From Cellulophaga fucicola (lineage in GTDB: Bacteria > Bacteroidota > Bacteroidia > Flavobacteriales > Flavobacteriaceae), in the NCBI RefSeq assembly GCF_900119145.1, contig NZ_FPIY01000004.1:186001-250000 (forward strand): a stretch of DNA of 64,000 nt. Reading direction: 5' to 3'. The position numbers and the translations under genes are program-made. The notes under the pieces are model-generated. The model was not told the origin of the DNA and made no database searches. It saw only the letters and a list, made by a program, of their open reading frames with translations. Below, one piece after another: positions 18,755 to 39,260 of this stretch. Each line of letters opens with the position of its first letter. The first letter of the stretch is position 1.

Positions 18755-18763
18755 GTTGTAAGC
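18679..18763 (+). other. Left-end attachment-like site of the array
   Basis: ACAACTAG at 18679-18686 pairs with CTAGTTGT at 18752-18759 and, inside it, GCGTTTA at 18700-18706 pairs with TAAACGC at 18726-18732. The fold ends at the first cassette junction, GTTGTAAGC (18755-18763). It is shorter than, and different from, the 200-nt sites further on, and stands where an integron would have attI or a terminal attC. A primary attachment site is inferred, not shown. Confidence 0.45.
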
Positions 18764-18776
18764 AATTTAAAATCAT

Positions 18777-19322
18777 ATGAATAGGATTCAGAAAACCCTA
18801 ATAATTGGATTTTTAATAATTTCTGGATTTATAGTTTTCAGAATTTTTTTAATGGGCTATTACTATGATTTTCTTGAATATTGGACTTTGAGAGATAAGA
18901 TAGTCTGGACCGAATCAAATAAATTGAGTTGGGAGGATTTCTCAAATACTATAGATAAAGAAGGGCTTTATGCTAAAGTCGGACTTTCATCCCGCTACAA
19001 TGTAGACGACCCCATTTTATTTAGGTCCAAAACAGTTTTTATACCTAAAGAATCATATGTATCTGATACCTCCGACAGTTTTAATCTTAGAGTCTCACAA
19101 GCCAAATTTGACCTTCTAGAAATCTACCGGAGGCAAATGGCAAGAGAAGTAGATAGCCTAAGAGCTGGAAGTGTTGATTATTATAAACCCTCGGATTTTA
19201 AAAAAATGAACGAAAGATATTATGATTTGTTTGAATCGGAATGGGAAGGATTTAGAAATGCGGAAAATGAATCTGATTACCTAGAGAAGATTGAGAAGAA
19301 AATCCAACTCGAGTTGAAATAA
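18777..19322 (+). CDS. Cassette 1: membrane-anchored hypothetical protein
   Basis: 181 residues. A single N-terminal hydrophobic segment (about residues 7-30, TLIIGFLIISGFIVFRIFLMGYYY) is followed by a soluble part with WTESNKLSWEDFSNTID, a pattern loosely reminiscent of the N-terminus of DUF922-type Bacteroidota proteins, and a charged helical C-terminus (YRRQMAREVDSLRAG...YLEKIEKKIQLELK). Not assignable. The cassette begins at GTTGTAAGC (18755), 22 nt before the ATG; the matching box GCTCACAAC follows the stop codon at 19328 (eight of nine bases). Confidence 0.7.
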   Translation: MNRIQKTLIIGFLIISGFIVFRIFLMGYYYDFLEYWTLRDKIVWTESNKLSWEDFSNTIDKEGLYAKVGLSSRYNVDDPILFRSKTVFIPKESYVSDTSDSFNLRVSQAKFDLLEIYRRQMAREVDSLRAGSVDYYKPSDFKKMNERYYDLFESEWEGFRNAENESDYLEKIEKKIQLELK

Positions 19323-19327
19323 AAACT

Positions 19328-19528
19328 GCTCACAACAAAACCTAAACGTAATGCGGACTTTAGGTCAAAATCGAAAGGTCTGTGTATATTTATAAAGTCG
19401 CTAAATCTTATGGATTTAGCTTGAGACAAGAAAAAATAAACCTAAACAATAAGCTTTAGCTTCGTGCGAAGACGGAAACGAAAAGTTTCCTTGCCTCCGC
19501 ACTACGCTTAGCCTAGCCGTTGGCAAAC
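19328..19528 (+). repeat. attC-like site 1
   Basis: Left box GCTCACAAC at 19328-19336, right junction GTTGGCAAAC from 19519. The arm CCTAAACGTAATGCGG (about 19340-19356) pairs with CCGCACTACGCTTAGC (about 19497-19512). The central hairpin is GCTAAATC-loop-GATTTAGC, and a distal arm AAGCTTTAGC lies at 19451-19460. Confidence 0.75.
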
Positions 19529-19549
19529 ATTTAAAAGAAAAAAAACACT

Positions 19550-21286
19550 ATGGAAATAAAAGAATTTACAAGCTTATTAGAAACTCCAGTCAATACACTT
19601 TTAAAATCAATTGGAAGCGAATTAAAACAAGTTGCGAAAAATAGAATACTGGAATATCAAGCTAGTGAATTCAAAAGAAATTATTTTACAAAAACATTAT
19701 TACATAGGTCCGAACCAATTAAATTAACCGAATTTTATCAGCCCTTACATATAGCTCAACAGAAAGATATTAGGAAAATTCCTTCTAAAATAAAGAAAAT
19801 CCCAACTGAAGACGTTTCCAAATTATTCAAAAAATCAAATTACATAACTCTCATTGGAAATGCAGGAAGTGGGAAAAGCACAATAGTAAAATATCTTTTC
19901 ATAAACGCTGTTCAATCAGGTTATAAAATACCTATCAAAATAGAACTGAGATATTTAAATGAATATAAACATTCATTTACTGATTACATCTATAATGAAA
20001 TATTTCTCTTTCACAAGCTTGGATTTACTTCTCAAATAATAGACAGGTTACTTGGAGCAGAATCATTTGTTTTCTTTTTTGATGGTTATGATGAGATAAG
20101 TTCAAGTAAAAAGGAAAAAATTACACAGGAGATTGACCAATTCGTGAGTAGATTTCCCAAAAATGCTTACTTAATCACGTCACGTCCTTATACAAACATT
20201 GACACACTACCTTTATTTTCTAACTATACCGTTTGCGATTTAGATGAAAAAGAAATCCCGGCGTTCGTTAAAAAACAAATATCCAATAGTGAGGAAGAAT
20301 TAGCAGAAAAAATAATTAAAGCTATTAGCCAAATAGATAATAGGTCCTATCGGACATTTTTAAGTAACCCCCTTCTCCTTTCAATGTTCATTTTAACTTT
20401 TCAATCTTACTCTGAAATACCTAAAAAAAGAAGCGATTTTTACAAGCAGGTTTTTGATACTCTTTATTCTGTTCATGATAGTGTTTCTAAACTTTCCTAT
20501 GTTAGAGAAAAAATATCTGGTTTACCTAAAGATGGTTTTGAAGATATTTTGAGATTATTTAGTTTCATTTCCTTTTTTGAAGAAAAATTTATTTTTCAAG
20601 TTAAATATTTAGAGCAAAAATTAAATATCATAAAAGAAAAAAAGAAAAACTTAAAATTTGATAATGAAAATCTCATTGAAGATTTACAGGTAGCTATCGG
20701 GATTTTAAACAAAGAGGGACTTGATTATACTTTCCCTCATAGGTCATTGCAAGAATATTTTTCTGCAAACTATATTAGTAATTTAAGTGACCAAAATAAA
20801 GAGTTGATTTTTAAAAAAATAAAATCAATCATAGAAAAGGAATATTTTTATCTTATAAACAATCATCATTTTCTTGCCTTATTAGGGGAACAGGATTACA
20901 ATTCAATGATGAAATTAGTTGCTATTCCAATTTTAGAATCGATATTCAAAAATCTTGATTCAAGCAAAGAATTTGATATAAATCAAAAATACGATATCGT
21001 ATGTAAAACATTCTTGATAACGGCAGACTTGATGCAACCAGGATTACGCAAAGAATTAATTCATGATGAATTTTGCGATAAAAATAGACCTAAAATCATA
21101 TTAATTGGCGAAAATACAAACACGTTTGTGTTTCCAAAATCAAAAGACGAAGAAATAGTGACTAAAAAAAGTGTCGATAAATCAATAGAGTTAATTAAAA
21201 AAAGAGGTCAATTTTGGATAGAAAATATTAAAAAAAATATTGCAGAACAAGAACAAAGCGATGCAGATATAATTGATATAATATAA
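19550..21286 (+). CDS. Cassette 2: NACHT-domain STAND NTPase, likely anti-phage
   Basis: 578 residues. A NACHT ATPase module carries Walker A GNAGSGKST at 103-111, Walker B FFFDGYDE around 175-182, a sensor-like ITSRPY motif and the NACHT-typical FPHRSLQEYFSA block near residue 400. The first 80 residues have no effector domain I can recognise, and the last 130 form a small helical tail that could be the sensor or the short C-terminal domain seen in bacterial NACHT proteins. Such proteins are known to protect bacteria from phages, but activity here is inferred. The cassette starts at GTTGGCAAAC (19519), 31 nt before the ATG, and is matched ten of ten by GTTTGCCAAC at 21291, five bases after the stop. 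Confidence 0.85.
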   Translation: MEIKEFTSLLETPVNTLLKSIGSELKQVAKNRILEYQASEFKRNYFTKTLLHRSEPIKLTEFYQPLHIAQQKDIRKIPSKIKKIPTEDVSKLFKKSNYITLIGNAGSGKSTIVKYLFINAVQSGYKIPIKIELRYLNEYKHSFTDYIYNEIFLFHKLGFTSQIIDRLLGAESFVFFFDGYDEISSSKKEKITQEIDQFVSRFPKNAYLITSRPYTNIDTLPLFSNYTVCDLDEKEIPAFVKKQISNSEEELAEKIIKAISQIDNRSYRTFLSNPLLLSMFILTFQSYSEIPKKRSDFYKQVFDTLYSVHDSVSKLSYVREKISGLPKDGFEDILRLFSFISFFEEKFIFQVKYLEQKLNIIKEKKKNLKFDNENLIEDLQVAIGILNKEGLDYTFPHRSLQEYFSANYISNLSDQNKELIFKKIKSIIEKEYFYLINNHHFLALLGEQDYNSMMKLVAIPILESIFKNLDSSKEFDINQKYDIVCKTFLITADLMQPGLRKELIHDEFCDKNRPKIILIGENTNTFVFPKSKDEEIVTKKSVDKSIELIKKRGQFWIENIKKNIAEQEQSDADIIDII

Positions 21287-21290
21287 AAAC

Positions 21291-21492
21291 GTTTGCCAAC
21301 AATGCCTAAACGTAATGCGGACTTTAGGGTGAAAACGAAAGGTCTGTGTATATTTATGAAGTCGCTAAATCTTTGGGATTTAGCTTTGGACAAGAAAAAA
21401 ATAAATCAAAACCAAAAGCTTTAGCTTCGTGCAAAACCGAAAGTAAATGTTTATCAACTGCCCTACGTTTCTTATACTTAACGTTAGCATTA
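21291..21492 (+). repeat. attC-like site 2
   Basis: Left box GTTTGCCAAC 21291-21300; junction GTTAGCATTA from 21483. Central hairpin GCTAAATC-TTTGG-GATTTAGC at 21364-21384; distal arm AAAAGCTTTAGC at 21414-21425; right side contains the family motif CTGCCCTACGTTTCTTATAC. Confidence 0.8.
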
Positions 21493-21501
21493 ATTACGTA
21501 A

Positions 21502-21783
21502 ATGAAAATAATACGTTTATTATTTATTCTGAGTGCAATTGGAATGGGATATGTGAGTTATAAACTTCACTCTGAAGATAATTACTCCACTGCTTCGGAG
21601 AAAATCAAAATTCTCCTTTCCGAAAACAAAATAAAAGTTGAAGGAAAAAATGAATTAATAAAAGATTTGGAAAACGAAATCCAAAAAGTTGAAGAGCGCA
21701 ATAGAGTTGTTTATATCCTTGATGCTACAATTTTAGTTTTTATAACTGGACTATATTTCCTTACCCCTAAAAAAGAAAACTAA
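21502..21783 (+). CDS. Cassette 3: small two-helix membrane protein
   Basis: 93 residues: an N-terminal membrane segment (IRLLFILSAIGMGYVSYKL), a charged coiled-coil-like middle (SEKIKILLSENKIKVEGKNELIKDLENEIQKVEERN) and a second membrane segment (VVYILDATILVFITGLYFL) with a short KKEN tail. No family recognised. The start ATG is 19 nt after the junction GTTAGCATTA, and the stop codon TAA is itself part of the matching box TAATGCTAAC (21781-21790), ten of ten bases complementary. Confidence 0.7.
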   Translation: MKIIRLLFILSAIGMGYVSYKLHSEDNYSTASEKIKILLSENKIKVEGKNELIKDLENEIQKVEERNRVVYILDATILVFITGLYFLTPKKEN

Positions 21784-21980
21784 TGCTAACAAAACCTATA
21801 AAAAATGCGGGTTTTGGTGCTTAACCCAAAGTTTAGAACTTTTAATCAAGTCCGCCAAATCTTTGGATTTGGCTTTAGAACAAAAAAGATAAAACAAAAT
21901 AAAAAGATTTGGCTAAGTGCTTAGTCAGAAATTCATTACTTTTAATTCCCGTACTAACCATAGCCTAAACGTTGCCCACA
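21781..21980 (+). repeat. attC-like site 3
   Basis: Left box TAATGCTAAC overlaps the stop codon; junction GTTGCCCACA from 21971. Central hairpin GCCAAATC-TTTG-GATTTGGC at 21854-21873 and an exact distal arm AAGATTTGGC near 21904-21913. Compared with sites 1 and 2 both arms change T/A to C/G together. Confidence 0.85.
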
Positions 21981-21982
21981 AT

Positions 21983-22876
21983 ATGAAAAAACTACCTGCA
22001 ATCATAGTCCTACTAATTTCAAACTTTTGTTTTAGTCAATTAAAATCAGTAATTATTGACAGTGAAACGAAAGAAAAAATACCTTATGTAAATATTTGGG
22101 TGGAAAATGAAAACATTGGAACAACATCAAACGAAAATGGAGAATTTGAATTGGAAATTGATGACACTAAAATCATTCTGTTTTCTGCAATCGGATTTGA
22201 AACAAAAAAAATATCATCCGATTCGATAAAAAATATTTTAGAGTTAAAACCATTAATAACTGAATTAGACGAAATTATTATCAATTCTAAAAAATCATCT
22301 CAAGAGTTGACAATTGGAGAGTTTAAAAAATCTAAAATCAATACTTATTTCGCTTGCGGAAAACAGCCTTGGATTTCAGCTAAATTTTTTGCCTATAACG
22401 AAAAATATGAAAGAACGCCTTATCTTAAAAAGTTAAGAATATTGACAAATAGTGACGTCAAAAATTCAAAGTTTAATATTAGACTTTATGGAGTAAATGT
22501 AAATGGAGAACCTGAAAATTATATTTATAATGAAAATATAATTGGAATAGCTAAAAAAGGAAAAAAAACAACGGAAATTGACCTTTCCGAATTAAATATA
22601 GAATTTCCCAACAAAGGTTTTTTTGTTGCGATTGAATGGCTGATAATAGAAGAAAACAAACACGAATATAACTATACAATGGAAGGCTCAAGGAAAAAAT
22701 TAATTGGAACTTCTTACGAACCTGCAATTGGAACTGTTCCTACTGAAACTAATGAAAATAGTTGGAGATTAAATCAAGGGAAATGGAGAAAAGCCTGGAA
22801 AAACAATAATAAAGCTATGAGAAAATATAGAAATAAATATAATCAGTTAGCAATTGAATTGACATTAACAAATTAA
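21983..22876 (+). CDS. Cassette 4: secreted protein with carboxypeptidase-like regulatory domain
   Basis: The ATG at 21983 is chosen because an earlier in-frame start at 21917 lies inside the upstream repeat, and because 21983 opens a clean signal peptide (MKKLPAIIVLLISNFCFSQ) 12 nt after the cassette junction. The 297-residue product has a CarboxypepD_reg-like beta domain (SVIIDSETKEKIPYVNIWVENENIGTTSNENGEFEL, about residues 22-85), which in Bacteroidota is found in surface and outer-membrane proteins, followed by an unrecognised beta-rich domain. Junction GTTGCCCACA is matched ten of ten by TGTGGGCAAC at 22882. Confidence 0.75.
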   Translation: MKKLPAIIVLLISNFCFSQLKSVIIDSETKEKIPYVNIWVENENIGTTSNENGEFELEIDDTKIILFSAIGFETKKISSDSIKNILELKPLITELDEIIINSKKSSQELTIGEFKKSKINTYFACGKQPWISAKFFAYNEKYERTPYLKKLRILTNSDVKNSKFNIRLYGVNVNGEPENYIYNENIIGIAKKGKKTTEIDLSELNIEFPNKGFFVAIEWLIIEENKHEYNYTMEGSRKKLIGTSYEPAIGTVPTETNENSWRLNQGKWRKAWKNNNKAMRKYRNKYNQLAIELTLTN

Positions 22877-22881
22877 AATAC

Positions 22882-23084
22882 TGTGGGCAACACGGTGTAT
22901 AAAACATAGCTAATAAGTGCTAGACCGGAAGGTTTGTGTATATTTAGAAAGTCCGCCAAATTTTTAATTTGGCTTTTAAAAAAGAGAAAAATTAAAAGCA
23001 AAACATAAAAATTAGGCTCTGTGTTAATCCGAAAATCTAGTGTCTTTTTTCACGCTACGTTTCATACACTAACCGTTACCAAAC
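22882..23084 (+). repeat. attC-like site 4
   Basis: Left box TGTGGGCAAC 22882-22891; junction GTTACCAAAC 23075-23084. Central hairpin GCCAAATT-TTT-AATTTGGC; distal arm AAAAATTAGGC. Both 3' arms show the same change GATTT to AATT, supporting a linked function. Confidence 0.8.
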
Positions 23085-23087
23085 ATT

Positions 23088-23612
23088 ATGAAAAGCAATT
23101 TTAACTATGTCATTATAATTATTATTGGATTAATAATAGCTGGAGCATCGTTTGCTTCCTCAATTTTGACGGAGAATATAAACGCTGGAATATGGCTTGA
23201 CAGGGGTTTGTGGATAGGAGAAATTGCTGGAATCTTTATGTTACTGTTGAATGGAACATTTATAAAAACCAAATACTTCAGAGTTATAAAAGGTATAATG
23301 GCTCTTATAATGATAGGAGCATTATTAAAAATTTTACATTGGGAATTTCAATTTATAACTGGTAATCTGATATTAATAGTTGGATTTATAGGAATAATGA
23401 CAACATACTTTTTTAGCTTCTTGAATAAGCCAATTAAAAAGCGACTTGATTATTTGAAACTTGCCTGGGTAATTACACGATATACTGTAGGGGTTTTAAT
23501 CTTTTTGCATATAATTCATCGAGATTATCAAGTGATTGCATCAATAATTATGTGGGCTGCTATATTTGATTATTTAATAGCAGAAAAGAAGAAAGGAAGA
23601 CTCTTTGAATAA
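23088..23612 (+). CDS. Cassette 5: polytopic membrane protein
   Basis: 174 residues with about five membrane helices (IIIIIGLIIAGASF..., GEIAGIFMLLLNGTF, GIMALIMIGALLKIL, GNLILIVGFIGIMTTYFFSF, WVITRYTVGVLIFLHII). The GALLKILHWEF segment recalls the second helix of GldL-type proteins, but the similarity is slight. No function assigned. The ATG lies four bases after the end of the junction box GTTACCAAAC (23075-23084), so transcription must come from upstream or from within the repeat. Matching box GTTTGGTAAC at 23618, ten of ten. Confidence 0.7.
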   Translation: MKSNFNYVIIIIIGLIIAGASFASSILTENINAGIWLDRGLWIGEIAGIFMLLLNGTFIKTKYFRVIKGIMALIMIGALLKILHWEFQFITGNLILIVGFIGIMTTYFFSFLNKPIKKRLDYLKLAWVITRYTVGVLIFLHIIHRDYQVIASIIMWAAIFDYLIAEKKKGRLFE

Positions 23613-23617
23613 ATAAC

Positions 23618-23823
23618 GTTTGGTAACAGAACCTAAAATTAATACGGTGACTTGGTGTTTAATCGAAAAGCTTGTGTAATTTTATAAGGTCGTCAAATCT
23701 GTTTGATTTGACATTTTAAAAAACAAAAAAATAAACGCAAACAAAAAGCTTTGTCTTAGCGCGAAGACGGAAACGAAAAGTTTCCTTACTACCGCACTAC
23801 GCTTAGCCTAGACGTTGTAAAAC
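23618..23823 (+). repeat. attC-like site 5
   Basis: Left box GTTTGGTAAC 23618-23627; junction GTTGTAAAAC 23814-23823. Central hairpin GTCAAATC (23692-23699) with GATTTGAC (23705-23712), a further compensatory change in the variable pair. The right part shares GAAGACGGAAACGAAAAG with site 1. Confidence 0.8.
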
Positions 23824-23825
23824 AT

Positions 23826-24617
23826 TTGAGAAATAAAATCTACATACTATTAATTTTGATAACATTTAGCTGTTCTGAGTCTAAAGAGAAAGAAACTGAA
23901 CGGATTGAAATGCGGAATTTAACAGTTTTTGAACTTGACTCTTTAATCTATGAATCTGAATACGAATTGACAATTCGGGAAAAAGATAGTGTCATAACAT
24001 ATAGTTACAGAAACAAAACTGACCCGAATAAAAACAAAGGCTTTCGGTACTTAAAAAATTCTGACCTCCTTTTTGCTGGACCATCTGAATTTTATCAAAT
24101 AGACTCAGATAAATTTCCAGTAATTTTTGGTTTTGAATTATATCATTCTGACCCAACAATAATGGATGCAATGGGACCGGTAATATTTAATAAGGAATAT
24201 GGCGTTCTGGGATTTGATAATGGTATGCTTACACAATACTATTTCACCAATGGAAAAACAGACGATATAGAATTACCGATTTTATATAAGGGAGAAAGTG
24301 CTGAATCAAATTTAGAGGGTATTTGGGAATCAAAGAACTCAACTTCTTATAGTAAAATTCATTTTTATAAAAATAACGTTTGGAAACGCACTTTTATAAA
24401 TTATGAGAAAGACACTATTACTGAAAAAGGCAAGTTTACAATGGCCAAAGATAGTGCTATATTCTTCCGCTATTTTGGTTCACAGCATTGGCCAAGTATG
24501 GACACTATAAACGATTATAAAACGTCCATCGGCAGTTTCGTTCTCTTTTTAAATTCAAAGAATGAATTAATCGATAATCAAGAGGATTATAAAAAGATAT
24601 ATATCAAGACGGAATAA
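23826..24617 (+). CDS. Cassette 6: lipoprotein of unknown function
   Basis: 263 residues. The only sensible start is a TTG at 23826, two bases after the junction box, which opens a lipoprotein signal peptide (MRNKIYILLILITFSCSES, lipid Cys at 16). The mature part is beta-rich with WESKNSTSYSKIHFYKNNVWKRTF and DTITEKGKFTMAKDSAIFFRYFG, which look like repeats of a lipocalin-like or DUF-type beta barrel, but I cannot name it. Matching box GTGTTACAAC at 24621 pairs with GTTGTAAAAC at nine of ten bases. Confidence 0.7.
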   Translation: MRNKIYILLILITFSCSESKEKETERIEMRNLTVFELDSLIYESEYELTIREKDSVITYSYRNKTDPNKNKGFRYLKNSDLLFAGPSEFYQIDSDKFPVIFGFELYHSDPTIMDAMGPVIFNKEYGVLGFDNGMLTQYYFTNGKTDDIELPILYKGESAESNLEGIWESKNSTSYSKIHFYKNNVWKRTFINYEKDTITEKGKFTMAKDSAIFFRYFGSQHWPSMDTINDYKTSIGSFVLFLNSKNELIDNQEDYKKIYIKTE

Positions 24618-24620
24618 AAC

Positions 24621-24821
24621 GTGTTACAACAACACCTATAAACAATACGGGTTTCGCGCTTAATCGAAAGGTTTGCCTATATTTATGGTGTCGCGAAATC
24701 TTTGGGATTTCGCTTTTGACGAGAAAAAAGAAAAAACAAAACCAAAAGATTTCGCTATGTGCGTGGCGGAAAGTAAACGCCAGTTTGCTCCCGTACTGTT
24801 CATAACTAACCCGTTGTAACC
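24621..24821 (+). repeat. attC-like site 6
   Basis: Left box GTGTTACAAC 24621-24630; junction GTTGTAACC 24813-24821. Central hairpin GCGAAATC (24693-24700) with GATTTCGC (24706-24713), and an exact distal arm AAAAGATTTCGC (24744-24755). This site carries the G-C version of the variable pair in all three arms. Confidence 0.85.
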
Positions 24822-24901
24822 AATTAAAACCCTACCTCAAATTAAACCTTTTTAATTTATTACAATCAAAGATGTATATGAACCTTAAAAATAAAATAAT
24901 T

Positions 24902-25171
24902 ATGAAAACGACACTTAAATTTATGTTTGCACTTGTTATTATGATAGGATTCACTACAAATGGTTTTTCTCAAAAAAAACATATAGTTGTTTATGTTAAA
25001 ACACCTAAAAAAGTTATTAAACCAACTATTGGATCTATAGTTTATCAGTTATCAAAAAATGCCAAAAAAGTAGTTGTAAACAAATCTCGTTATATAAAAC
25101 ATAATAATGTATTATATACTAAAGTTATAGTTAAAGGAAGAAATGCTTATAAAGTTGTAAGATATTCTTAA
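24902..25171 (+). CDS. Cassette 7a: small basic secreted protein
   Basis: The ATG at 24902 is preferred over 24872 because it opens a signal peptide directly (MKTTLKFMFALVIMIGFTTNGFSQ). The 89-residue product is strongly basic after cleavage (KKHIVVYVKTPKKVIKP... SKNAKKVVVNKSRYIKHNN...) with short beta strands. I do not recognise a family. First of three genes in a multi-gene cassette whose start, GTTGTAACC at 24813, is matched nine of nine only after the third gene, at 27558. Its own terminator follows at 25188. Confidence 0.6.
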   Translation: MKTTLKFMFALVIMIGFTTNGFSQKKHIVVYVKTPKKVIKPTIGSIVYQLSKNAKKVVVNKSRYIKHNNVLYTKVIVKGRNAYKVVRYS

Positions 25172-25187
25172 AAAATATAACAATTAT

Positions 25188-25228
25188 AAACACAGGTTAA
25201 ACTAAGTTTAATCTGTGTTTTATTTTTG
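25188..25228 (+). terminator. Terminator inside cassette 7, overlapping a -7-like box
   Basis: AAACACAGGTTAAAC at 25188-25202 pairs with GTTTAATCTGTGTTT at 25206-25220, followed by a T-rich tract. The tract itself reads TATTTTTG (25221-25228), a good TAnnTTTG box 14 nt before the next start codon, so it may both end one unit and start the next. Confidence 0.6.
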
Positions 25229-25242
25229 CAAAAAATCTAAAA

Positions 25243-27276: not shown

Positions 27277-27289
27277 ATAATAAAAAACA

Positions 27290-27553
27290 ATGAAAAAACA
27301 ATTCAAAATTTTAGTATCTACAAGTTTAGTAATAGCTTTTACAGCTTGTAAGTCTAGTCAAGACACAACAGATACTTCAAACAACAGAAAACCTCAAGAT
27401 GCATCTCAATTATTTAAAAAAATGGATACAAACAATGACGGGAAAATTTCAAAATATGAAGCCAAAGGGAAATTGAAAGAGAATTTTCTAAAAAGAGATA
27501 AAAACAATGATGGCTTTATTACTAGAAATGAAATGACAATAAGAAACAGATAA
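27290..27553 (+). CDS. Cassette 7c: small EF-hand lipoprotein
   Basis: 87 residues. A lipoprotein signal (FKILVSTSLVIAFTACKSS, lipid Cys at 20) precedes two EF-hand loops, DTNNDGKISKYE and DKNNDGFITRNE, joined by AKGKLKENFLKR. The EF-hand pair is nearly identical to the tail of the preceding gene, so one arose by partial duplication of the other. The gap between the genes is 13 nt, so they are cotranscribed. Box GGTTACAAC at 27558, five bases after the stop codon, closes the cassette opened at 24813. Confidence 0.75.
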   Translation: MKKQFKILVSTSLVIAFTACKSSQDTTDTSNNRKPQDASQLFKKMDTNNDGKISKYEAKGKLKENFLKRDKNNDGFITRNEMTIRNR

Positions 27554-27557
27554 AACT

Positions 27558-30335: not shown

Positions 30336-30350
30336 ACAAGGATAACATTT

Positions 30351-30550
30351 GCTAACAAGGTATAAAAAACATAGAGCGTTTGTGCTTAATTAAAAAGTCT
30401 GTGAATATTAACAAAGTCCGCTAAACATAAAATTTGGCGTTTATAGTAGAAAAGATAAAAAGCAAAATATTTATATTTAGCTAAGTAATAAACCGAAACG
30501 AAAGTGCTTATCACCTGCCCTACGATTTCTTATACTGAACGTTGGCACTC
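30351..30550 (+). repeat. attC-like site 8
   Basis: Left box GCTAAC 30351-30356; junction GTTGGCACTC from 30541. The left arm GCTAAACATAAA and distal arm TTTATATTTAGC (about 30469-30480) are complementary except one position, which would be a G-T wobble on the minus strand. Adjacent ATTTGGCG forms the alternative short hairpin. Confidence 0.75.
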
Positions 30551-30655
30551 ATTGAGCAACGAACTCAAATTGAGGAATGTAAAATGTTTTTTAATAAAAT
30601 TAAAATAATTACTAAAATTACATTCAAAGTGAATATTAATTAAAAAATAAATAAT

Positions 30656-32428: not shown

Positions 32429-32431
32429 ATT

Positions 32432-32512
32432 TTTATATTTAGCTAAGTAATAAACTGAAAAGACATCGCTTATTTACTGCCCTACGTTTCTTATACGGCA
32501 ACGTTGGAAATA
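32432..32512 (+). repeat. attC-like site 9, left half deleted
   Basis: Only the right half remains: TATATTTAGCTAAGTAATAA, the CTGCCCTACGTTTCTTATAC motif and the junction GTTGGAAATA (32503-32512). It starts right at the stop codon of the preceding gene, so a deletion removed the left box and central hairpin. Confidence 0.7.
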
Positions 32513-33713: not shown

Positions 33714-33717
33714 AAAC

Positions 33718-33818
33718 TATTGCCAACAAAGAATAAAAATCATAAACCGTTTGTGCTTAACCGAAAGGTCTGTGTTTATTTATACGCTACGTTTAATACA
33801 CAAGACCAGTTAGCCTTA
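33718..33818 (+). repeat. attC-like site 10, miniature
   Basis: Left box TATTGCCAAC 33718-33727 and junction GTTAGCC from 33809. The body is only about 100 nt: GTGCTTAACCGAAAGGTCTG is directly followed by TATACGCTACGTTTAATAC, so the central hairpin and distal arm are missing. Confidence 0.7.
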
Positions 33819-33826
33819 ATTAAAAA

Positions 33827-34645
33827 ATGAATAAACCAATACTATTATTACTGATTTTAATAACAATTTTATCTTGTAAAACTGAAAAGTCAACTGAAAT
33901 AATTGTTATTGGAACACTTCATAAACCAGAATCTAATTTTAACTCTGAGATTCTCTTTAATATACTAGAAGATGTACAACCCCATTTTATATTAGAAGAA
34001 CTAGACTCTTCTTTCTTTACTTCCAATTTTAGACACAAAAATGTTTCAGATAGTAATGAGCGTATGGCATCTGAAAAATATATTGAAAAATACCCGACAA
34101 CTAAATTGAGACCATATGAATTTGAAGGTAGAAATGAATATAGGATAAATACTGGCTCACGACCTACAGACGGTTTAACAACAAAACTTATAGATAGTTT
34201 AAACAATGTTGGTTTATTATCTAATACAGAAGCTAAAATTGATAATAAATACAAAGCTCTCTTAGAACCATTAATAATATTAGCATCTAAATCCCCTGAA
34301 AACTTTAACAACTCTACAACGGATAGCATTTGCGCAGAAAGACAATATTATCAGTATAAAATGTTGAGGAAAATAACCGATAAAAGAGATGAGTTTGAGA
34401 ATCAATATTATACCAAACCAAATGGAGAAAAAATAAGTTACCGAGATGGGTTTAAGTTGGCTGGTGATTTTTGGGATTTAAGAAATAAAACAATGGCAAA
34501 AAATATAATGAGAATTTCTGAACAGAACAAAGGCAAACGAATTGTTGTTCTCTGTGGATTTATGCACAGATATTATATTTTAAGTGAATTGAAAAAATTA
34601 ACAAAGAACAAAAACATTATCTTAAAAGAATATTACGAGAATTAA
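33827..34645 (+). CDS. Cassette 11: lipoprotein with TraB/ChaN-like motif
   Basis: 272 residues with a lipoprotein signal peptide (MNKPILLLLILITILSCKTE, Cys at 17). The mature start IIVIGTLHKPESNFNSEILFNILEDVQPHFILEE has the GTxH and downstream Glu motif of the TraB/GumN/EreA-ChaN group, and the C-terminus RIVVLCGFMHRYYILSELKKL matches the closing GxxH-type motif. Members include metal-dependent hydrolases, but activity here is unproved. The cassette begins at GTTAGCC (33809); its 3' box GCATAAC does not match, in line with a recombined site after this gene. Confidence 0.65.
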   Translation: MNKPILLLLILITILSCKTEKSTEIIVIGTLHKPESNFNSEILFNILEDVQPHFILEELDSSFFTSNFRHKNVSDSNERMASEKYIEKYPTTKLRPYEFEGRNEYRINTGSRPTDGLTTKLIDSLNNVGLLSNTEAKIDNKYKALLEPLIILASKSPENFNNSTTDSICAERQYYQYKMLRKITDKRDEFENQYYTKPNGEKISYRDGFKLAGDFWDLRNKTMAKNIMRISEQNKGKRIVVLCGFMHRYYILSELKKLTKNKNIILKEYYEN

Positions 34646-34653
34646 AAAACTAC

Positions 34654-34828
34654 GCATAACAACGCATAAAATTCATTGCTAGTAAAAGCCTATTTACCAA
34701 TCCCGAAGCGTTGGGAGGCATTTAGAACAAGAAAATAAAAGCAAAATATTTATATTTAGCTAAGTAATAAACCGAAACGAAAGTGCTTATTTATTGCCCT
34801 ACGTTTCTTATACTAACCGTTGGCATTC
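34654..34828 (+). repeat. attC-like site 11, chimeric
   Basis: The left half has the second-class motif AATCCCGAAGCGTTGGGA (34699-34716), the right half the first-class TTATATTTAGCTAAGTAATA and TGCCCTACGTTTCTTATAC, ending with junction GTTGGCATTC from 34819. The left box GCATAAC does not pair with the start of its own cassette, as expected after recombination between two unlike sites. Confidence 0.7.
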
Positions 34829-34843
34829 ATTATAAAAAAACGA

Positions 34844-35953
34844 ATGAAAAAATATTTAAAAGCATTAATTGGACTTGCACTTTCGAGTTGTTCTAATGGA
34901 CAAACAACCGTTGCTGAAAATGGGATTGAAGTCATAAATAACGGAATTACCAAAAAACAGTCTGAACTTCTATTTGATAACACCAAATCATTTCCAAACG
35001 GAACTCAACTTTCGATTGCTTTAATTAAAAATGGAAAAATTGACTTTATTGGAGTTGAAAGAAGAAATGACACAATTAAGTTAATAGAAAATCGGAAGAA
35101 TACTTTTGAAATAGGTTCTATAACTAAAGTATTTACAGCAACCTTGTTGTCAAATTTTGTAAACAACAAAGAATTGAAATTAGACGACAATATCCAAGAT
35201 TATCTTGACTTTAAAATTAAATCTGAAAACAGCATAACTTTCAAGGAACTTACAAATCATACATCTGGACTACCAAGATTACCTTCTAATTTAAATCTTT
35301 TTCTTGTAGACCAAGACAATCCTTATAAAGATTATGACGAAGAAAAACTCATAAGCTATTTAACGAAAGAAGTGAAACTAAATCAAGAGCCTGGAATTAA
35401 ATATGAATATTCTAACCTTGGTGCTGGAATTTTGGGATTTGAATTAGCTACTATTTCAAAATCATCTTATGAAGCGCTACTACAAGAGAAAATATTTACA
35501 AAGTACAAAATGATAAACTCTACTAGTACAAGAAAAAATGTAGAAAACAAACTTGTCAAAGGATTAAAACCAAATGGAAAAACGGCATCGAACTGGGATT
35601 TTGATGTTTTAGCTGGTGGTGGAGCGATTTTTTCTACTGTAGAAGATTTATCCAAATTTGGTTTAGCTCAATTTGATAATACGAATAGCGAATTAGCTCT
35701 AACCCAAAAGCCTACATTTAAAGTAAATGACAATATGAGTATAGGTCTTGGATGGCATATTTTAAAAAGAAAAAACGGAGGCGAATTGATTTGGCATAAT
35801 GGAGGAACTGGTGGTTATACTTCGTCAATGGCTTTAGATTTAGAAAATAAAAATGGAATTATAATACTATCCAATGTTTCTGCATTTAATAAAAAAATGG
35901 GGAATATTGACCAACTATGTTTCGGATTAATAAAAACATTGAATATAAAATAA
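34844..35953 (+). CDS. Cassette 12: class C beta-lactamase-like serine hydrolase, lipoprotein
   Basis: The ATG at 34844 is chosen because the upstream in-frame TTG at 34820 is part of the cassette junction and 34844 opens a lipoprotein signal (MKKYLKALIGLALSSCSNGQ). The 369-residue product has the class C penicillin-binding/beta-lactamase motifs: SITK with the nucleophile Ser at 92, YSN in YEYSNLGAGI, and HNGGTGG (in place of KTG) near the C-terminus. Substrate could be a peptide, ester or beta-lactam; most chromosomal members are peptidases or esterases. Junction GTTGGCATTC pairs with ATGCCAAC at 35958 at eight bases. Confidence 0.88.
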   Translation: MKKYLKALIGLALSSCSNGQTTVAENGIEVINNGITKKQSELLFDNTKSFPNGTQLSIALIKNGKIDFIGVERRNDTIKLIENRKNTFEIGSITKVFTATLLSNFVNNKELKLDDNIQDYLDFKIKSENSITFKELTNHTSGLPRLPSNLNLFLVDQDNPYKDYDEEKLISYLTKEVKLNQEPGIKYEYSNLGAGILGFELATISKSSYEALLQEKIFTKYKMINSTSTRKNVENKLVKGLKPNGKTASNWDFDVLAGGGAIFSTVEDLSKFGLAQFDNTNSELALTQKPTFKVNDNMSIGLGWHILKRKNGGELIWHNGGTGGYTSSMALDLENKNGIIILSNVSAFNKKMGNIDQLCFGLIKTLNIK

Positions 35954-35955
35954 CG

Positions 35956-36158
35956 AAATGCCAACAATTGCTATAATTAATATGGGTTTTGGTGCTAAAC
36001 CGAAAAGCCTGTGAATATTAACAAAGTCCGCTAAATATAAAATTTGGCGTTTATAGAAGAAAAGATAAAAGCAAAATATTTATATTTAGCTCAGTAATAA
36101 ATCGAAACGAAAGTGCTTATCAACCGCCCTACACTTCTTATAATGAACGTTAACTACC
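35956..36158 (+). repeat. attC-like site 12
   Basis: Left box ATGCCAAC 35958-35965; junction GTTAACTACC 36149-36158. Left arm GCTAAATATAAA (36030-36041) is complementary over twelve bases to the distal arm TTTATATTTAGC (36079-36090), while the adjacent ATTTGGCG gives a shorter alternative hairpin. Confidence 0.8.
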
Positions 36159-36160
36159 AT

Positions 36161-36874
36161 ATGAAAAACAAACTCCCTAACATATTAATATTTCTTTTTT
36201 GTTCATTAATCGGTTCTAGTCAAACAACTGGGGATTTAGTTGACATAGAACAACAAAACATTAAAACTTGGAAAACTGATAAAGAAAAATATTATGGAAC
36301 TTATTCATTTGGTTTTTCTGAAAATGAATCTGAATTGAGAATTTTCGGAAATGATACTATTACTATTGCTCAGCACAAATATATCAGCTGGAATGGAAAA
36401 GGGTGGGACAAAAAATATATAACTTTTACAAATGTTAAAATTAATGACTCTAAATTTTATTCGGACCAATATAATGGAGTATTTATTAAATTTAAGACAT
36501 ATGATGAAGGTGAAATTATAGAAGGATTACATTTAGAAAAATATTTAACATTCCAATATAGAGGAAAAAATGAAAAAGGTGGAGAAATTGGAAATAAAAA
36601 CAAAACTTATATCGAAGGGAAATACCCTAAATCATCTACAAGTATTTTAAGTTATAATTATTTAAACTCCTTAAATATTGACAAACTTAATATAATGAGA
36701 AATGAAATATTTGCGAGGTACGGCTATAAATTTAAAGAAGGTGGGAAAATGAATAATTATTTCTCTAATCAAGATTGGTATTATGGTCAAAACAAAAATG
36801 TGAATGAATTATTGACAATAATAGAGAGAAAAAATATTATTCGAATTAAACAGATTGAAAAAGAAAAACGGTAG
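36161..36874 (+). CDS. Cassette 13: secreted YARHG-domain protein
   Basis: The ATG at 36161 follows the junction box by two bases and opens a signal peptide (MKNKLPNILIFLFCSLIGSSQ); an upstream in-frame ATG at 36113 lies inside the repeat and is rejected. The 237-residue product has an N-terminal beta domain and a C-terminal YARHG domain (LNIMRNEIFARYGYKFKEGGKMNNYFSNQDWY), an extracellular domain of unknown ligand. Its stop codon TAG is inside the 3' box GGTAGTTAAC (36870-36879), which matches GTTAACTACC at all ten bases. Confidence 0.82.
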   Translation: MKNKLPNILIFLFCSLIGSSQTTGDLVDIEQQNIKTWKTDKEKYYGTYSFGFSENESELRIFGNDTITIAQHKYISWNGKGWDKKYITFTNVKINDSKFYSDQYNGVFIKFKTYDEGEIIEGLHLEKYLTFQYRGKNEKGGEIGNKNKTYIEGKYPKSSTSILSYNYLNSLNIDKLNIMRNEIFARYGYKFKEGGKMNNYFSNQDWYYGQNKNVNELLTIIERKNIIRIKQIEKEKR

Positions 36875-37071
36875 TTAACACGGTATAAAAAACATAGGGA
36901 GTTTGTGCTAAACCGAAAATTCTGTGAATATTAATAAAGTCCGCTAAATATAAAATATGGCGTTTATAGAAGAAAAAATAAAAGCAAAATATTTATATTT
37001 AGCTAAGTAATAAACCGAAACGATAGTGCTTATCACCTGCCCTACACTTCTTATAATGAACGTTTTTCATG
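36870..37071 (+). repeat. attC-like site 13
   Basis: Left box GGTAGTTAAC 36870-36879 covers the stop codon; junction GTTTTTCATG from 37062. Left arm GCTAAATATAAA (36943-36954) and distal arm TTTATATTTAGC (36992-37003) are fully complementary. Confidence 0.8.
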
Positions 37072-37087
37072 ATTTGAGATAACCGAA

Positions 37088-37726
37088 ATGATAAAGATAT
37101 TTAAGCGAAATATTAAGTCTGAATATGAGGAAAGATTAAAAAAGTCGTTTCCAAAAGAATTGTATTCGGACTTGAATGAAGTTTTGAAAATTTTACCATT
37201 AGATAAGAATCTAGTTAAATTATGTGATGACCAAACTCATAAAGTTGACAATCTAATTCACGAATCGGAATTGAATATTGAATTTAATAACGAAACCCTA
37301 ATAATTCCTTCTAGGCTTTACTTTAACGAACCAAATCCAGAATTAGAGAAATCTTTGACTGACAAACAAAAAGACATTTTAAATTGTATTTATTTACGTC
37401 ATCACAATGGATATTTAAGAGAAAAACGACTGAATTTAATATCTGATAATTCAGAAAAGTGGACTGTTCCATTTATAATTCAATTAATTGGTGAATATGT
37501 TTATGAATTGCTTCCTATTATTTACAAAAAAATAGACAAAAACACTCTGGATTATTACGTTGATTTTATAGTTGAAAACCCTAAATATTGGCAACAGACT
37601 GAAAGTAGAATGATAAGCTATTGGAATGAATATTATAGATACAAATTTCCGAAATTGAAAGATTATTTGGGATTTGAAATTGTTAACCGAATAAAAAAAC
37701 GAAAGCAGAATAATGGCTATAAGTAA
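37088..37726 (+). CDS. Cassette 14: cytoplasmic hypothetical protein
   Basis: 212 residues without signal peptide or membrane segments, one of few cassette products that appear cytoplasmic. It has a basic start (MIKIFKRNIKSEYEERLKKSFPKEL) and a central LTDKQKDILNCIYLRHHNGYLREKRLNLI followed by an amphipathic helix IIQLIGEYVYELLPIIYKKI. The pattern is seen in small immunity-like or HEAT-type proteins, but I cannot assign it. The 3' site lacks a box matching GTTTTTCATG. Confidence 0.65.
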   Translation: MIKIFKRNIKSEYEERLKKSFPKELYSDLNEVLKILPLDKNLVKLCDDQTHKVDNLIHESELNIEFNNETLIIPSRLYFNEPNPELEKSLTDKQKDILNCIYLRHHNGYLREKRLNLISDNSEKWTVPFIIQLIGEYVYELLPIIYKKIDKNTLDYYVDFIVENPKYWQQTESRMISYWNEYYRYKFPKLKDYLGFEIVNRIKKRKQNNGYK

Positions 37727-37841
37727 TTGCTACTTCTAGCCTACTTACCAATCCCGAAGCGTTGAAATTTTATCTAATTTTTATTTGCTAAATTTAGTGT
37801 TTAAACCAGGCAACTAACCATACACAAACGCGTAGCTAATT
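37724..37841 (+). repeat. attC-like site 14 (second class, shortened)
   Basis: Carries the second-class motif AATCCCGAAGCGTTG (37750-37764), TTATTTGCTAAATTTAGTGT and ACACAAACGCGTAGCTAATT; the junction is near 37832 (GTAGCTA). No left box complementary to the preceding cassette is visible. Confidence 0.6.
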
Positions 37842-37848
37842 AAAAAAA

Positions 37849-38436
37849 ATGAAAAATTTAACGATACTAATCCTATTTTTTCTAGGATTATTTTTAAAAA
37901 CTTACTCTCAAACAAAAACCCATCAATTATGGGAAAATACTGAAATAGGCTCTGTAATAGTATATTATTCATTAGAAGAAGCTTTAAAGAACCCTGAAAA
38001 AGTTAGAGGTTTACAAATAAGAGATAAAGGACTTGAAAAGATACCTAATGACATTTCGAAATTAATAAATCTTGAATATTTAAGATTACATCATAATAAA
38101 TTTGAAAAGATTCCTGATTTTATATTCAAAATGAATAAAATTAAGGTTCTTGAAATTGGAGGTAACAAATTAAAAATTATCCCTAAAGAAATTGGTGAAA
38201 TGACACAACTAAAACATTTAGGACTAAAAGCTAATAACTTAACAACTCTTCCAGAATCAATTGGTAATTTAACTAAATTAGAATCACTTGACTTAGATTT
38301 TAATCCTTTGAAAACACTTCCTAAATCTATAACAAAACTTAAAAATTTAAAAACGCTATATTTTTCTCATAATGATTTATCTAATGATGATAAAGAAAAA
38401 ATTAAAAAATTGCTTCGCCAAAATCGCGGCTATTAA
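37849..38436 (+). CDS. Cassette 15: secreted leucine-rich repeat protein
   Basis: 195 residues with a signal peptide (MKNLTILILFFLGLFLKTYSQ). From residue about 65 to 185 there are five leucine-rich repeats of about 23 residues (LEYLRLHHNKFEKIPDFIF, LEIGGNKLKIIPKEIG, LGLKANNLTTLPESIG, LDLDFNPLKTLPKSIT, LYFSHNDLSNDDKEK). Such repeats bind proteins. Likely periplasmic or surface exposed. The 3' box TAGCTACAAC at 38441 pairs with TAGCTA at the cassette start; its AAC half suggests the original start was GTTGTAGCTA. Confidence 0.82.
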   Translation: MKNLTILILFFLGLFLKTYSQTKTHQLWENTEIGSVIVYYSLEEALKNPEKVRGLQIRDKGLEKIPNDISKLINLEYLRLHHNKFEKIPDFIFKMNKIKVLEIGGNKLKIIPKEIGEMTQLKHLGLKANNLTTLPESIGNLTKLESLDLDFNPLKTLPKSITKLKNLKTLYFSHNDLSNDDKEKIKKLLRQNRGY

Positions 38437-38440
38437 AAGC

Positions 38441-38632
38441 TAGCTACAACACTATATATAACAAATTGGGCGATTAGTACTTAACCGAAAGGCTATTGTC
38501 TATTTAGAAAGTCGTCAAATCTTTTGATTTAGCTTTACATAAAAAAGGAAAAAAATATTGGGCTTGTGTTTAATCCGAAAACTTATCGCTTGTTTACAGC
38601 TCAACTAATCTTATACATAAACGTTGGCAATA
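38441..38632 (+). repeat. attC-like site 15
   Basis: Left box TAGCTACAAC 38441-38450; junction GTTGGCAATA 38623-38632. Central hairpin GTCAAATC-TTTT-GATTTAGC; a TTAATCCGAAAA copy lies right of it. Confidence 0.7.
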
Positions 38633-38690
38633 ATTAGTAACAATGTTTAATTTAAGGCGACTAACTAGTTATTAATTCTAAATCAATAAA

Positions 38691-39080
38691 ATGAATACTA
38701 AAATATTAATGACCTCAAGTGCTTTATTTTTGGCTATTATTGGAATCCTTCTTTCTTTTTTACCAAATGAAATATTGGAATATCTAAATGTTGAGCCAAA
38801 TATTATTACTATACTTTTTGTAAAAATAATGAGCGCATTATATATGGGTTTTGGAATTCTAAATGCGATGGCTAAAGGAACGTTAATTGGGGGGATTTAT
38901 AATAGACCAATTGCAATTGGAAATCTAATGCATTTTGGTGTTGGGGCAATTGCACTAGTTAAAATTGCTTCTAAGATTCAAGTACATTCAGAAATTATCA
39001 TTTCTCTCGCAGCAGTGTATGTGATTTTTGCAATACTTTTTGTCTATGTTTTTAAAACTAATCCGACAAAAGTAAAATAA
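38691..39080 (+). CDS. Cassette 16: small four-helix membrane protein
   Basis: 129 residues, almost entirely hydrophobic, with four membrane helices (MTSSALFLAIIGILLSFL, FVKIMSALYMGFGILNAM, NLMHFGVGAIALVKIA, IIISLAAVYVIFAILFVYVF). The overall look is of the small DUF-type integral membrane proteins common in Flavobacteriaceae; no named family can be given. Starts 68 nt after its junction GTTGGCAATA, which pairs with TATTACCAAC at 39084 at nine of ten bases. Confidence 0.7.
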   Translation: MNTKILMTSSALFLAIIGILLSFLPNEILEYLNVEPNIITILFVKIMSALYMGFGILNAMAKGTLIGGIYNRPIAIGNLMHFGVGAIALVKIASKIQVHSEIIISLAAVYVIFAILFVYVFKTNPTKVK

Positions 39081-39083
39081 AAC

Positions 39084-39260
39084 TATTACCAACAAAGCCT
39101 AAACGTAATGCGGACTTTAGGGTAAAACCGTAAGGTTTGTGTACATTTAGAATGTCGCGAAATCTTTGGGATTTCGCTTTAGAACTAAAAAAAAGAAAAG
39201 CAAGCTAAAAGTTTCTTTGCCTACCCTACCCTACTTGCCATAGTTTAAACGTTAGCTGTA
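39084..39260 (+). repeat. attC-like site 16
   Basis: Left box TATTACCAAC 39084-39093; arm CCTAAACGTAATGCGG; central hairpin GCGAAATC-TTTGG-GATTTCGC; junction GTTAGCTGTA from 39251. Nearly identical to site 19 at 43886, from which it differs mainly by a CCCTA duplication. Confidence 0.75.

What the first reader, a model, noticed from the sequence alone, without database searches (positions are those of the whole stretch)
18755..39260. Cassette array in which each gene's two ends are complementary: an integron-like system with unconventional attC-like sites
Seen directly: after each junction cGTT, 6-10 bases are complementary to the box that follows the stop codon of the same gene, and these bases change from gene to gene. 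Ten of ten bases match for cassettes starting at 19519, 21483, 21971, 23075 and 36149; nine of ten at 23814, 32503 and 38623; nine of nine at 24813; eight at 34819; eight of nine at 18755. From established knowledge, integron cassettes carry exactly this: the bases after the G^TT cut at the cassette start belong to the same circle as the 3' box. Inference: these cassettes were inserted by a site-specific recombinase using folded sites. The sites (about 200 nt) do not fit RYYYAAC/GTTRRRY well, so standard attC models may miss them. I cannot say if the family has already been described.
Basis: partly seen in the sequence, partly recalled or inferred. Interest (0 to 1): 0.95.

Follow-up and report, generated by a model that had tools for sequence, protein, structure and literature searches.

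The report
Integron with a dozen docking sites
In a marine Bacteroidota bacterium (genus Cellulophaga), genes lie in exchangeable cassettes that change between species right at a GTT triplet, behind a dozen related docking sites spread round the chromosome, all likely served by one integrase that lacks a hallmark part of known integron integrases, so that a widespread gene-exchange system seems to have been overlooked.

Summary
In the window 14 cassettes have ends complementary at 86 of 98 positions beyond GTT (0 of 200,000 re-pairings reach this); an automatic test on 67 cassettes of other genomes agrees. Near-identical cassettes in different places, and the same chromosomal places in different species, break at cGTT. 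The roughly 190-nt sites show R and L stems by covariation. The same genome carries a tyrosine recombinase followed directly by an attI-like dyad and the same kind of cassette. It lacks about 42 residues present in IntI1; its family occurs in 112 of 395 Bacteroidota genomes sampled. The surprise: the window's array starts at one of 12 related 'leader plus attI' docking sites in this genome; over five genomes of the genus, 45 of 48 copies examined have a box fitting their head at 9 or 10 of 10 positions (controls 102 of 369). That the recombinase works the dispersed sites in trans, and that the leader is a promoter, are inferred. I found no description in the papers searched (preprints not held).

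The parts
18617..18757 (+). Docking site: conserved leader with promoter-like block, then attI-like dyad, ending at the GTT junction
   Evidence: one of 12 leader-bearing copies in the genome; homology with four other genomes of the genus ends at 18747-18762
18724..18757 (+). attI-like core AATAAACGCAATAAAATGAGGTTACTGACTA^GTT
   Evidence: the 34-base pattern occurs exactly twice in the genome, here and directly behind the recombinase gene (C12:981002); reversed pattern 0
18755..19518 (+). cassette 1 (ORF 18777-19322) with its 3' site from 19327
19519..21482 (+). cassette 2 (NACHT/STAND ATPase ORF 19550-21286), site from 21291
21483..21970 (+). cassette 3 (ORF 21502-21783), site from 21781
21971..23074 (+). 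cassette 4 (CarboxypepD_reg-like ORF from ATG 21983 to 22876), site from 22882
23075..23813 (+). cassette 5 (ORF 23088-23612), site from 23618
23814..24812 (+). cassette 6 (ORF 23826-24617), site from 24621
24813..27779 (+). cassette 7, three ORFs incl. YHYH/metallo-hydrolase protein; site of another subtype from 27557
27780..30540 (+). cassette 8 (ORF 27983-30232), site from 30347 (box placed by hand)
30541..32502 (+). cassette 9 (ORF 30656-32428); 3' site truncated, box not found
   Evidence: 55.5 bits
32503..33808 (+). cassette 10 (aspartyl protease/PDZ ORF 32535-33713); body 96% identical to a cassette of genome G010 in another setting
33809..34818 (+). cassette 11 (ORF 33827-34645; box placed by hand)
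34819..36148 (+). cassette 12 (PF00144 family ORF 34844-35953), site from 35956
36149..37061 (+). cassette 13 (YARHG ORF 36161-36874), site from 36870
37062..37831 (+). cassette 14 (ORF 37088-37726), short degenerate site
   Evidence: sequence; box not found
37832..38622 (+). cassette 15 (leucine-rich-repeat-looking ORF 37849-38436), core GTA/TAC, site from 38438 (box placed by hand)
   Evidence: repeat look read by eye
38623..39250 (+). cassette 16 (ORF 38691-39080), site from 39084
39251..44042 (+). continuation of the array with degenerate sites
   Evidence: sequence
43889..44045 (+). site outside the given coordinates
   Evidence: 115 bits
47846..47960 (+). partial site near the far end of the array
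   Evidence: 46 bits

Best explanation
The stretch is a gene-cassette array of an integron-like system that starts at one of 12 related docking sites in this genome, and a tyrosine recombinase encoded on another contig of the same genome likely inserts cassettes there as circles, using their folded ~190-nt 3' sites, at the GTT. Shown: (1) each cassette begins with GTT plus a head and ends in a site whose first box is complementary to that head, as a circle closed at G^TT would require; (2) sites carry covarying R and L stems with a central stem; (3) the docking site is a conserved leader, a dyad and then GTT, and what follows differs between species while the flank is conserved up to the GTT; (4) one further docking core lies directly behind the stop codon of a tyrosine recombinase, followed by a cassette and two sites, all in the same direction. 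Inferred: the recombinase does the work, it serves the dispersed docking sites in trans, the sites act as folded single strands, and the leader's conserved AT-rich block is a promoter that expresses the first cassette. The result would be one integrase feeding about a dozen independent first-cassette positions in place of one.
For: Head/box complementarity. Breakpoints: in ten pairs of cassettes at least 97% identical with different neighbours, all ten agree from the C of cGTT on at the left, and at the right up to the second T in all but two columns, and agreement ends there; at the ssb locus four genomes of the genus match the window at 86-90% up to 18757, 18757, 18762 and 18747 and then carry other cassettes; seven groups of docking sites with matching flanks (one weak), 30 comparisons, alignments end -20 to +31 nt from the G, 19 of 30 at +2 to +7. 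Site structure: complementary-excess pairs on constant sums 202 (R), 200 (L), 207 and 167 (centre) in 118 non-redundant sites. Recombinase, attI-like core and cassette with 10/10 head and box. In 20 integrase regions all 88 model sites are on the integrase's strand; those regions were cut to hold mostly downstream DNA, so position is tested elsewhere: 15 of 17 sites in named loci with both flanks lie downstream on its strand, and head/box chains of 4 or more are found downstream in 41 of 68 and upstream in 4 of 45 loci. Docking sites. In the own genome 32 of 42 sites lie within 30 kb downstream of a docking site on the same strand and 0 behind an opposite-strand one, in intervals covering 7.5% of the genome. 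Recombinase and sites co-occur: both 60, only recombinase 10, only sites 9, neither 40 of 119 genomes (relatedness not corrected).
Against: No recombination was observed. The window array has no recombinase gene of its own, and 10 of 42 sites in the genome have no docking site within 30 kb on their contig (five are on an 11-kb contig, four within 16 kb of a contig end, one on C9); one docking site has no model site behind it. In G015 the short-type recombinase gene is broken although 13 of its 14 docking sites examined have a 9-10 of 10 box. Exceptions to the layout: 2 of 17 model sites in named loci lie upstream of the integrase, and in G067 one lies on the other strand. The dispersed copies belong to five related genomes, so they are not independent; G051, with a 78% identical recombinase, has only the core beside its gene. 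A box at 9 of 10 is common by chance (102 of 369 controls), so the perfect matches (31 of 48, controls 11 of 369) carry the weight. The leader's likeness to a Bacteroidota promoter is by eye.
Confidence: 0.86

Rival explanations
1. Cassettes are exchanged by RecA-type homologous recombination between the 190-nt repeats, without a dedicated recombinase.
For: The repeats are alike within a genome (mean column identity 70% in the window) and could recombine.
Against: Ends would fall anywhere in the repeat; they fall at cGTT. Docking sites carry no 190-nt repeat before their GTT, yet are loaded. Heads and boxes stay matched.
Confidence: 0.04
2. The work is done by XerC/XerD (present in the genome) and not by the third recombinase.
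For: XerD at C8 and XerC at C11 have open frames; the docking core is a dyad like a dif site.
Against: The third recombinase has the attI-like core right behind it in G000 and, read by eye, in most of the 20 regions, arrays behind it, it co-occurs with sites, and recombinase types go with different dyads.
Confidence: 0.05
3. The dispersed docking sites are relics: one attI region was copied, or cassettes spread to secondary sites, and the copies are no longer used.
For: In G015 the recombinase gene is broken; some heads fit their boxes imperfectly; the window's core has four mismatches to the one beside the recombinase.
Against: 31 of 48 copies have a perfect 10/10 box for their head, and at seven groups of matching sites the heads differ in every genome compared, so turnover went on after the sites were in place.
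Confidence: 0.12
4. It is an ordinary, already catalogued integron remnant (CALIN) of the kind software reports.
For: Layout and logic are those of integrons; IntegronFinder authors report integrase-only elements in Bacteroidetes (PMC9024848, passages). NCBI's NF040815 model, named 'site-specific tyrosine recombinase/integron integrase', comes close to its cut-off with the own protein and scores higher in some relatives, which may pass it.
Against: The own protein is below the cut-offs of TIGR02249 and NF040815 and lacks the IntI insertion; the core consensus is not met; sites are longer than the usual 57-141 nt (range recalled); the same paper names one complete Bacteroidetes integron (Salinibacter ruber). 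IntegronFinder itself could not be run here.
Confidence: 0.1

Closest known systems
Sedentary chromosomal integron / superintegron (IntI-attI-attC, e.g. VCR arrays; recalled, and described in PMC11023631, passages)
   Same: Cassettes with head and 3' box that close at G^TT, R and L stems, many alike sites in one genome, attI beside a tyrosine recombinase, cassettes in one direction
   Different: Recombinase lacks the IntI insertion; integrase reads toward the array with attI behind its stop codon; sites ~190 nt without RYYYAAC/GTTRRRY; a dozen dispersed attI-like docking sites in place of one
attG insertion of integron cassettes into genomes (Loot et al. 2024; not held, seen only as described in PMC12901181 and cited in PMC11023631)
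   Same: Cassettes found away from the integrase
   Different: attG sites are described as strongly divergent from att sites; here the dispersed sites are one conserved family with a leader, at matching places in several species, and carry arrays
Integrons of Archaea (PMC9668308, passages)
   Same: attI reported immediately downstream of intI
   Different: Dispersed attI copies are not mentioned in the passages seen; not compared by sequence
NF040815 'site-specific tyrosine recombinase/integron integrase' (XerA group)
   Same: Best NCBIfam match of the recombinase, 209.8 bits
   Different: Below its cut-off of 220 bits for the own protein (relatives may pass); the model implies no array or attI
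Complete integron of Salinibacter ruber M1 (PMC9024848, passages)
   Same: An integron in a Bacteroidetes genome
   Different: Not compared here by sequence

Membership tests
Integron (IntI-attI-attC) | Integrase belongs to the IntI family (TIGR02249 / IntI-specific insertion) | tested here: not met
   206 bits against cut-off 265; best of 18 relatives E 9.4e-63, close to the own value; 63 residues where IntI1 has 105. Positions R153, H242, R245, H268, Y277 invariant in 18 of 18 (catalytic roles recalled). Tree joins it with IntI1-type rows against XerC/XerD at 100/99, but only two Xer rows and long branches
Integron (IntI-attI-attC) | attI site beside the integrase gene, with first cassette inserted at its GTT | tested here: met
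   a GTT within 150 nt of the stop has a 10/10 box downstream in 36 of 83 loci against 19 of 415 control windows (9 or 10: 60 of 83 against 116 of 415); dyad arms of 8 or more in 12 of 14 sites chosen by eye against 6 of 280 random 45-mers
Integron (IntI-attI-attC) | Cassette = gene plus 3' site whose first box pairs with the cassette's own head | tested here: met
Integron (IntI-attI-attC) | attC core consensus RYYYAAC / GTTRRRY | tested here: not met
   9 of 146 and 8 of 146; cassettes were admitted to that set only with AAC and GTT present
Integron (IntI-attI-attC) | attC folds through R and L boxes separated by unpaired spacers | tested here: met
   covariation on sums 202 and 200 in 118 sites
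Integron (IntI-attI-attC) | integrase gene divergent from the array (classical arrangement, recalled; exceptions are known) | tested here: not met
   co-directional: 88 of 88 sites, 15 of 17
Integron (IntI-attI-attC) | cassette promoter Pc upstream of attI | tested here: inconclusive
   leader block with many columns at 90% or more over 48 copies; promoter activity not testable
Integron (IntI-attI-attC) | integrase catalyses attC x attI recombination on the bottom strand | not testable with these tools
   needs an assay
attG insertion | insertion into divergent, unrelated genomic targets | tested here: not met
   dispersed sites share leader and dyad and have counterparts in other species
XerC/XerD | recombinase scores as XerC or XerD | tested here: not met
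   167 and 170 bits against cut-offs 335 and 330; the genome has separate XerC and XerD candidates, themselves slightly below those cut-offs (291 and 323 bits)

The most novel reading that the evidence does not exclude
A distributed integron: one recombinase of a phylum-wide, so far unrecognised integron-integrase branch without the IntI insertion serves about a dozen vertically inherited docking sites (leader-promoter plus attI) round the chromosome, so that a dozen first-position cassettes can be expressed and exchanged in parallel.
Probability: 0.7. Interest if true: 0.93.

Novelty: new variant of a known kind. Interest (0 to 1): 0.88.

Why it matters
The integron survey I could read names one complete integron in Bacteroidetes proper (PMC9024848, passages); here the integrase family is in 112 of 395 sampled genomes of the phylum, and cassette arrays are plain once the site is known. 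Their cassettes are a large unread pool of mobile genes. The dispersed docking sites change the picture of an integron from one platform with an expression gradient to many parallel first positions fed by one enzyme. The enzyme without the IntI insertion makes the question of what that insertion is needed for directly testable.

Tried and rejected
RNAalifold on array-form sites found no structure, as expected because neighbouring cassettes' boxes do not pair; circle-form sites do (without the ribosum option one search gives only the R stem). Rfam found nothing. PADLOC found no defence family in ten window ORFs. I considered that ssb, next to the window's docking site, is an integron component: 3 of 101 integrase regions hold an SSB-like ORF, so it is not a general partner. 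A model-free chain test was meant to have the other strand as control; that is no control, because a head/box chain reads the same on both strands; only the upstream control counts (chains of 4 or more: 41 of 68 downstream, 4 of 45 upstream), and AT-rich DNA gives chance chains, up to 6 in window 1-18000. Pairs were selected from 20 (body at least 97%, site end at least 0.9, upstream 120 under 0.8) and share copies. In one search one copy appears twice (L159/L274) and one junction was registered a few bases off (L165 7720). Of the copies read, one search covered all 12 of G000 and of G002, 14 in G015 (one not listed), 8 of 13 in G003 and 1 of 9 in G011.
Full report
OBSERVATION. With head = 7 bases after GTT and box = 7 bases before the AAC behind the gene, 14 window cassettes match at 86 of 98 positions; the next cassette's head fits the box no better than chance (2.45 of 7), and none of 200,000 re-pairings reaches 86. 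Three boxes were placed by hand and three further heads (30541, 37062, 39251) were left out because no clean box was found. To remove choice, I took sites only from a covariance model and counted 67 cassettes in other genomes automatically: 384 of 469, 38 perfect, 14 at 4 or less, off-diagonal 2.56 of 7, 0 of 20,000 permutations. In the largest set 86 of 146 are perfect and 30 of 146 score 3 or less.

SITES. Eleven window sites gave model R1. It finds 42 sites in the own genome at E up to 0.001, in about eleven places, and sites in 69 of 119 relatives (at most 22 candidates scored per genome). In 118 non-redundant sites written in circle form, complementary-excess column pairs fall on constant sums: 202 for the ten-base R stem, 200 for an L stem (columns 14-31 with 169-186), separated by spacers of three and five bases, and 207 plus 167 for alternative central stems. 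That is the R''-L''...L'-R' plan of attC. Strict GTTRRRY fits 8 of 146 and RYYYAAC 9 of 146. The eleven modelled sites are 168-197 nt long.

BREAKPOINTS. Among 20 cassette pairs at least 80% identical over 85% of both, ten have bodies at least 97% identical and different neighbours. At the left all ten agree from the C of cGTT on, and upstream of it agreement is 1-8 of 10 in all but one of the 23 columns shown; at the right 25 of 27 columns up to the second T agree in all ten (the others 8 and 9), and behind it agreement is 1-8 of 10. Nine pairs lie within one genome, one joins two species (99.4%). The pairs share copies and are not ten independent events.

RECOMBINASE. The genome (G000) has XerD- and XerC-like proteins, a recombinase with a 468-aa frame and a fourth, 297 aa, at C12:980091-980984. 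Directly behind its stop lies AATAAACGCAATAAACTGCGTTTACTAACTA^GTTATATACC; the cassette that follows ends in GGTATATAAC (10 of 10) and an R1-type site (86 bits), and a second, weaker site (34 bits) follows before the contig ends. In 20 regions around relatives of this gene 88 sites were found in 17 regions, all on the gene's strand. Those regions hold only about 1 kb upstream, so that downstream position was not tested there. It was tested in 80 named loci with flanks up to 10 kb on both sides where contigs allow: 15 of 17 R1 sites lie downstream on the gene's strand, two upstream; and head/box chains of 4 or more units occur downstream in 41 of 68 and upstream in 4 of 45 loci. A dyad plus GTT follows the stop in most of the 20 regions by eye; of 14 such sites that I picked, 12 have arms of 8 or more, against 6 of 280 random 45-mers. 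Over 83 loci with enough sequence, a GTT within 150 nt of the stop has a 10/10 box downstream in 36, controls 19 of 415. Named loci with the gene include Flavobacterium, Psychroflexus, Winogradskyella, Algoriphagus, Rufibacter, Pontibacter, Arundinibacter, Terrimonas, and Saprospiraceae and Bacteroidales MAGs (the best 80 of 576 kept). Rufibacter shows a chain of 14 units downstream and 2 upstream. A Pontibacter plasmid carries the gene too. The family model separates the branch (283 bits or more in the rows tried) from IntI1-type rows and a Paracoccus integrase (188-209) and from XerC/D (143-156); it is found in 112 of 395 Bacteroidota genomes at E up to 1e-70. Against TIGR02249 the own protein scores 206 bits (cut-off 265), against NF040815 209.8 (cut-off 220); relatives reach lower E-values with NF040815 and may pass it. 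It has 63 residues where IntI1 has 105. Of the 120 closest proteins listed, those with a name are called tyrosine-type recombinase, (site-specific) integrase or XerD. Open frames of 378 aa or more in 16 of 21 regions show about 95 extra N-terminal residues that the own protein lacks (start codons not determined), without a Pfam match in the one tested.

DOCKING SITES. The attI-like 34-mer occurs exactly twice in the genome as a pattern: behind the recombinase and at window 18724-18757, the very start of the array. With two mismatches allowed it occurs 9 times in G000, 8 in G002, 12 in G003, 5 in G011, 5 in G015, 0 in 13 other genomes of the genus, and 0 times with the pattern reversed; these five are the genomes of the genus with the short recombinase type. 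Reading around them showed a longer shared element: a leader of about 100 nt plus the dyad. A search of 60 genomes with it gives 16 hits in G000, which I read as 12 leader-bearing copies (73-83% identical to the query copy), the core beside the recombinase, one leader fragment and two palindrome hits on the other strand; by the same reading 12 in G002, 13 in G003, 9 in G011 (plus two shorter) and 13 in G015 (one search shows a fourteenth). Four other genomes have only matches of about 40 nt. G051, with a 78% identical recombinase, has only the core beside its gene. Of 48 copies examined (one twice), 31 have a perfect 10/10 box for their head downstream and 45 have 9 or 10; controls 11 and 102 of 369. 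In G000, 32 of 42 sites lie within 30 kb behind a docking site on the same strand, none behind an opposite one; one docking site has no R1 site behind it. Two copies are preceded by terminator-like repeats AAGCCTCTTT...AAGAGGCTTTTTT (by eye).

SAME PLACE, OTHER CASSETTES. The window's docking site sits beside ssb. In G003, G002, G011 and G015 the same flank, 86-90% identical over about 1.4 kb, ends at window position 18757, 18757, 18762 and 18747 and is followed by other cassettes. Seven groups of docking sites have matching flanks in two to five genomes (one group rests on a weak 148-nt match); in 30 comparisons the alignment ends between -20 and +31 nt from the G, 19 of them at +2 to +7, and the heads differ in every case.

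MECHANISM. Shown are the anatomy, the turnover and its ends. Inferred, by analogy with integrons: excision as a circle, insertion of a folded single-stranded site, expression of the first cassette from the leader, and service of all docking sites by one enzyme in trans. The genus name rests on G003 being Cellulophaga sp. 20_2_10 and on the tool's 'same genus'.

WHAT IS KNOWN. IntegronFinder 2.0 (PMC9024848, passages) reports that earlier only integrases without attC were detected in Bacteroidetes and names one complete integron, in Salinibacter ruber; a review lists Bacteroidota among phyla with integrons (PMC8618304, passages); a set of 11 taxon-specific attC models does not include Bacteroidota, and 'bacteroid' does not occur in its main text (PMC8352920, passages); a Tenacibaculum genome was searched with IntegronFinder and none found (PMC10013915, passages). 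Searches for integrons with Bacteroidota, Bacteroidetes, Flavobacteri-, Cellulophaga, attG and multiple attI listed no title or abstract start that describes this system. Preprints are not held, and Cury 2016 and Loot 2024 could not be read, so an unseen description is possible.

Noticed in passing
window 18064-18399 (-): A 111-aa SSB gene is divergent from the docking site. In G013, G009, G005 and G016, which have another recombinase type, a copy of that type's attI pattern (in G005 and G016 ending ATT, not GTT) also lies about 280-300 nt from an ssb-like match, and in G001 the integrase lies 1 kb from one; yet only 3 of 101 integrase regions hold an SSB-like ORF.
   Followed up: partly
window 39251-39450, 44043-44180, 47960-48110: About 150-200 nt behind the junction are nearly the same three times, followed by different genes, as if one cassette start had been copied or shuffled (read by eye).
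   Followed up: no
window 27557-27779, 37726-37831, about 45980-46110: A second site subtype with 'CGAAGCGTTG' (read by eye) that model R1 mostly misses.
   Followed up: no
window 37832 / 38438-38447: A cassette whose core is GTA, mirrored by TAC in its own box: covariation at the core triplet itself.
   Followed up: no
L046-L065 integrases: About 95 extra N-terminal residues (pattern W..-MxY-xNTxxNLxxIF in many) in 16 of 21 open frames, no Pfam match in the one tested; the own recombinase lacks them.
   Followed up: partly
sites, central part (columns 76, 91, 131): One strand segment can pair with either of two partners that covary with it (sums 167 and 207): two alternative central hairpins.
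   Followed up: no
G015:C1:1351690-1394016: Eight docking sites in one direction within 43 kb (a ninth, weaker), in a genome whose short-type recombinase gene is broken.
   Followed up: partly
L168 (Pontibacter kalidii plasmid pls1): The recombinase family on a mobilizable plasmid, followed by small co-directional genes; its head/box chain is short (3 downstream, 2 upstream).
   Followed up: partly
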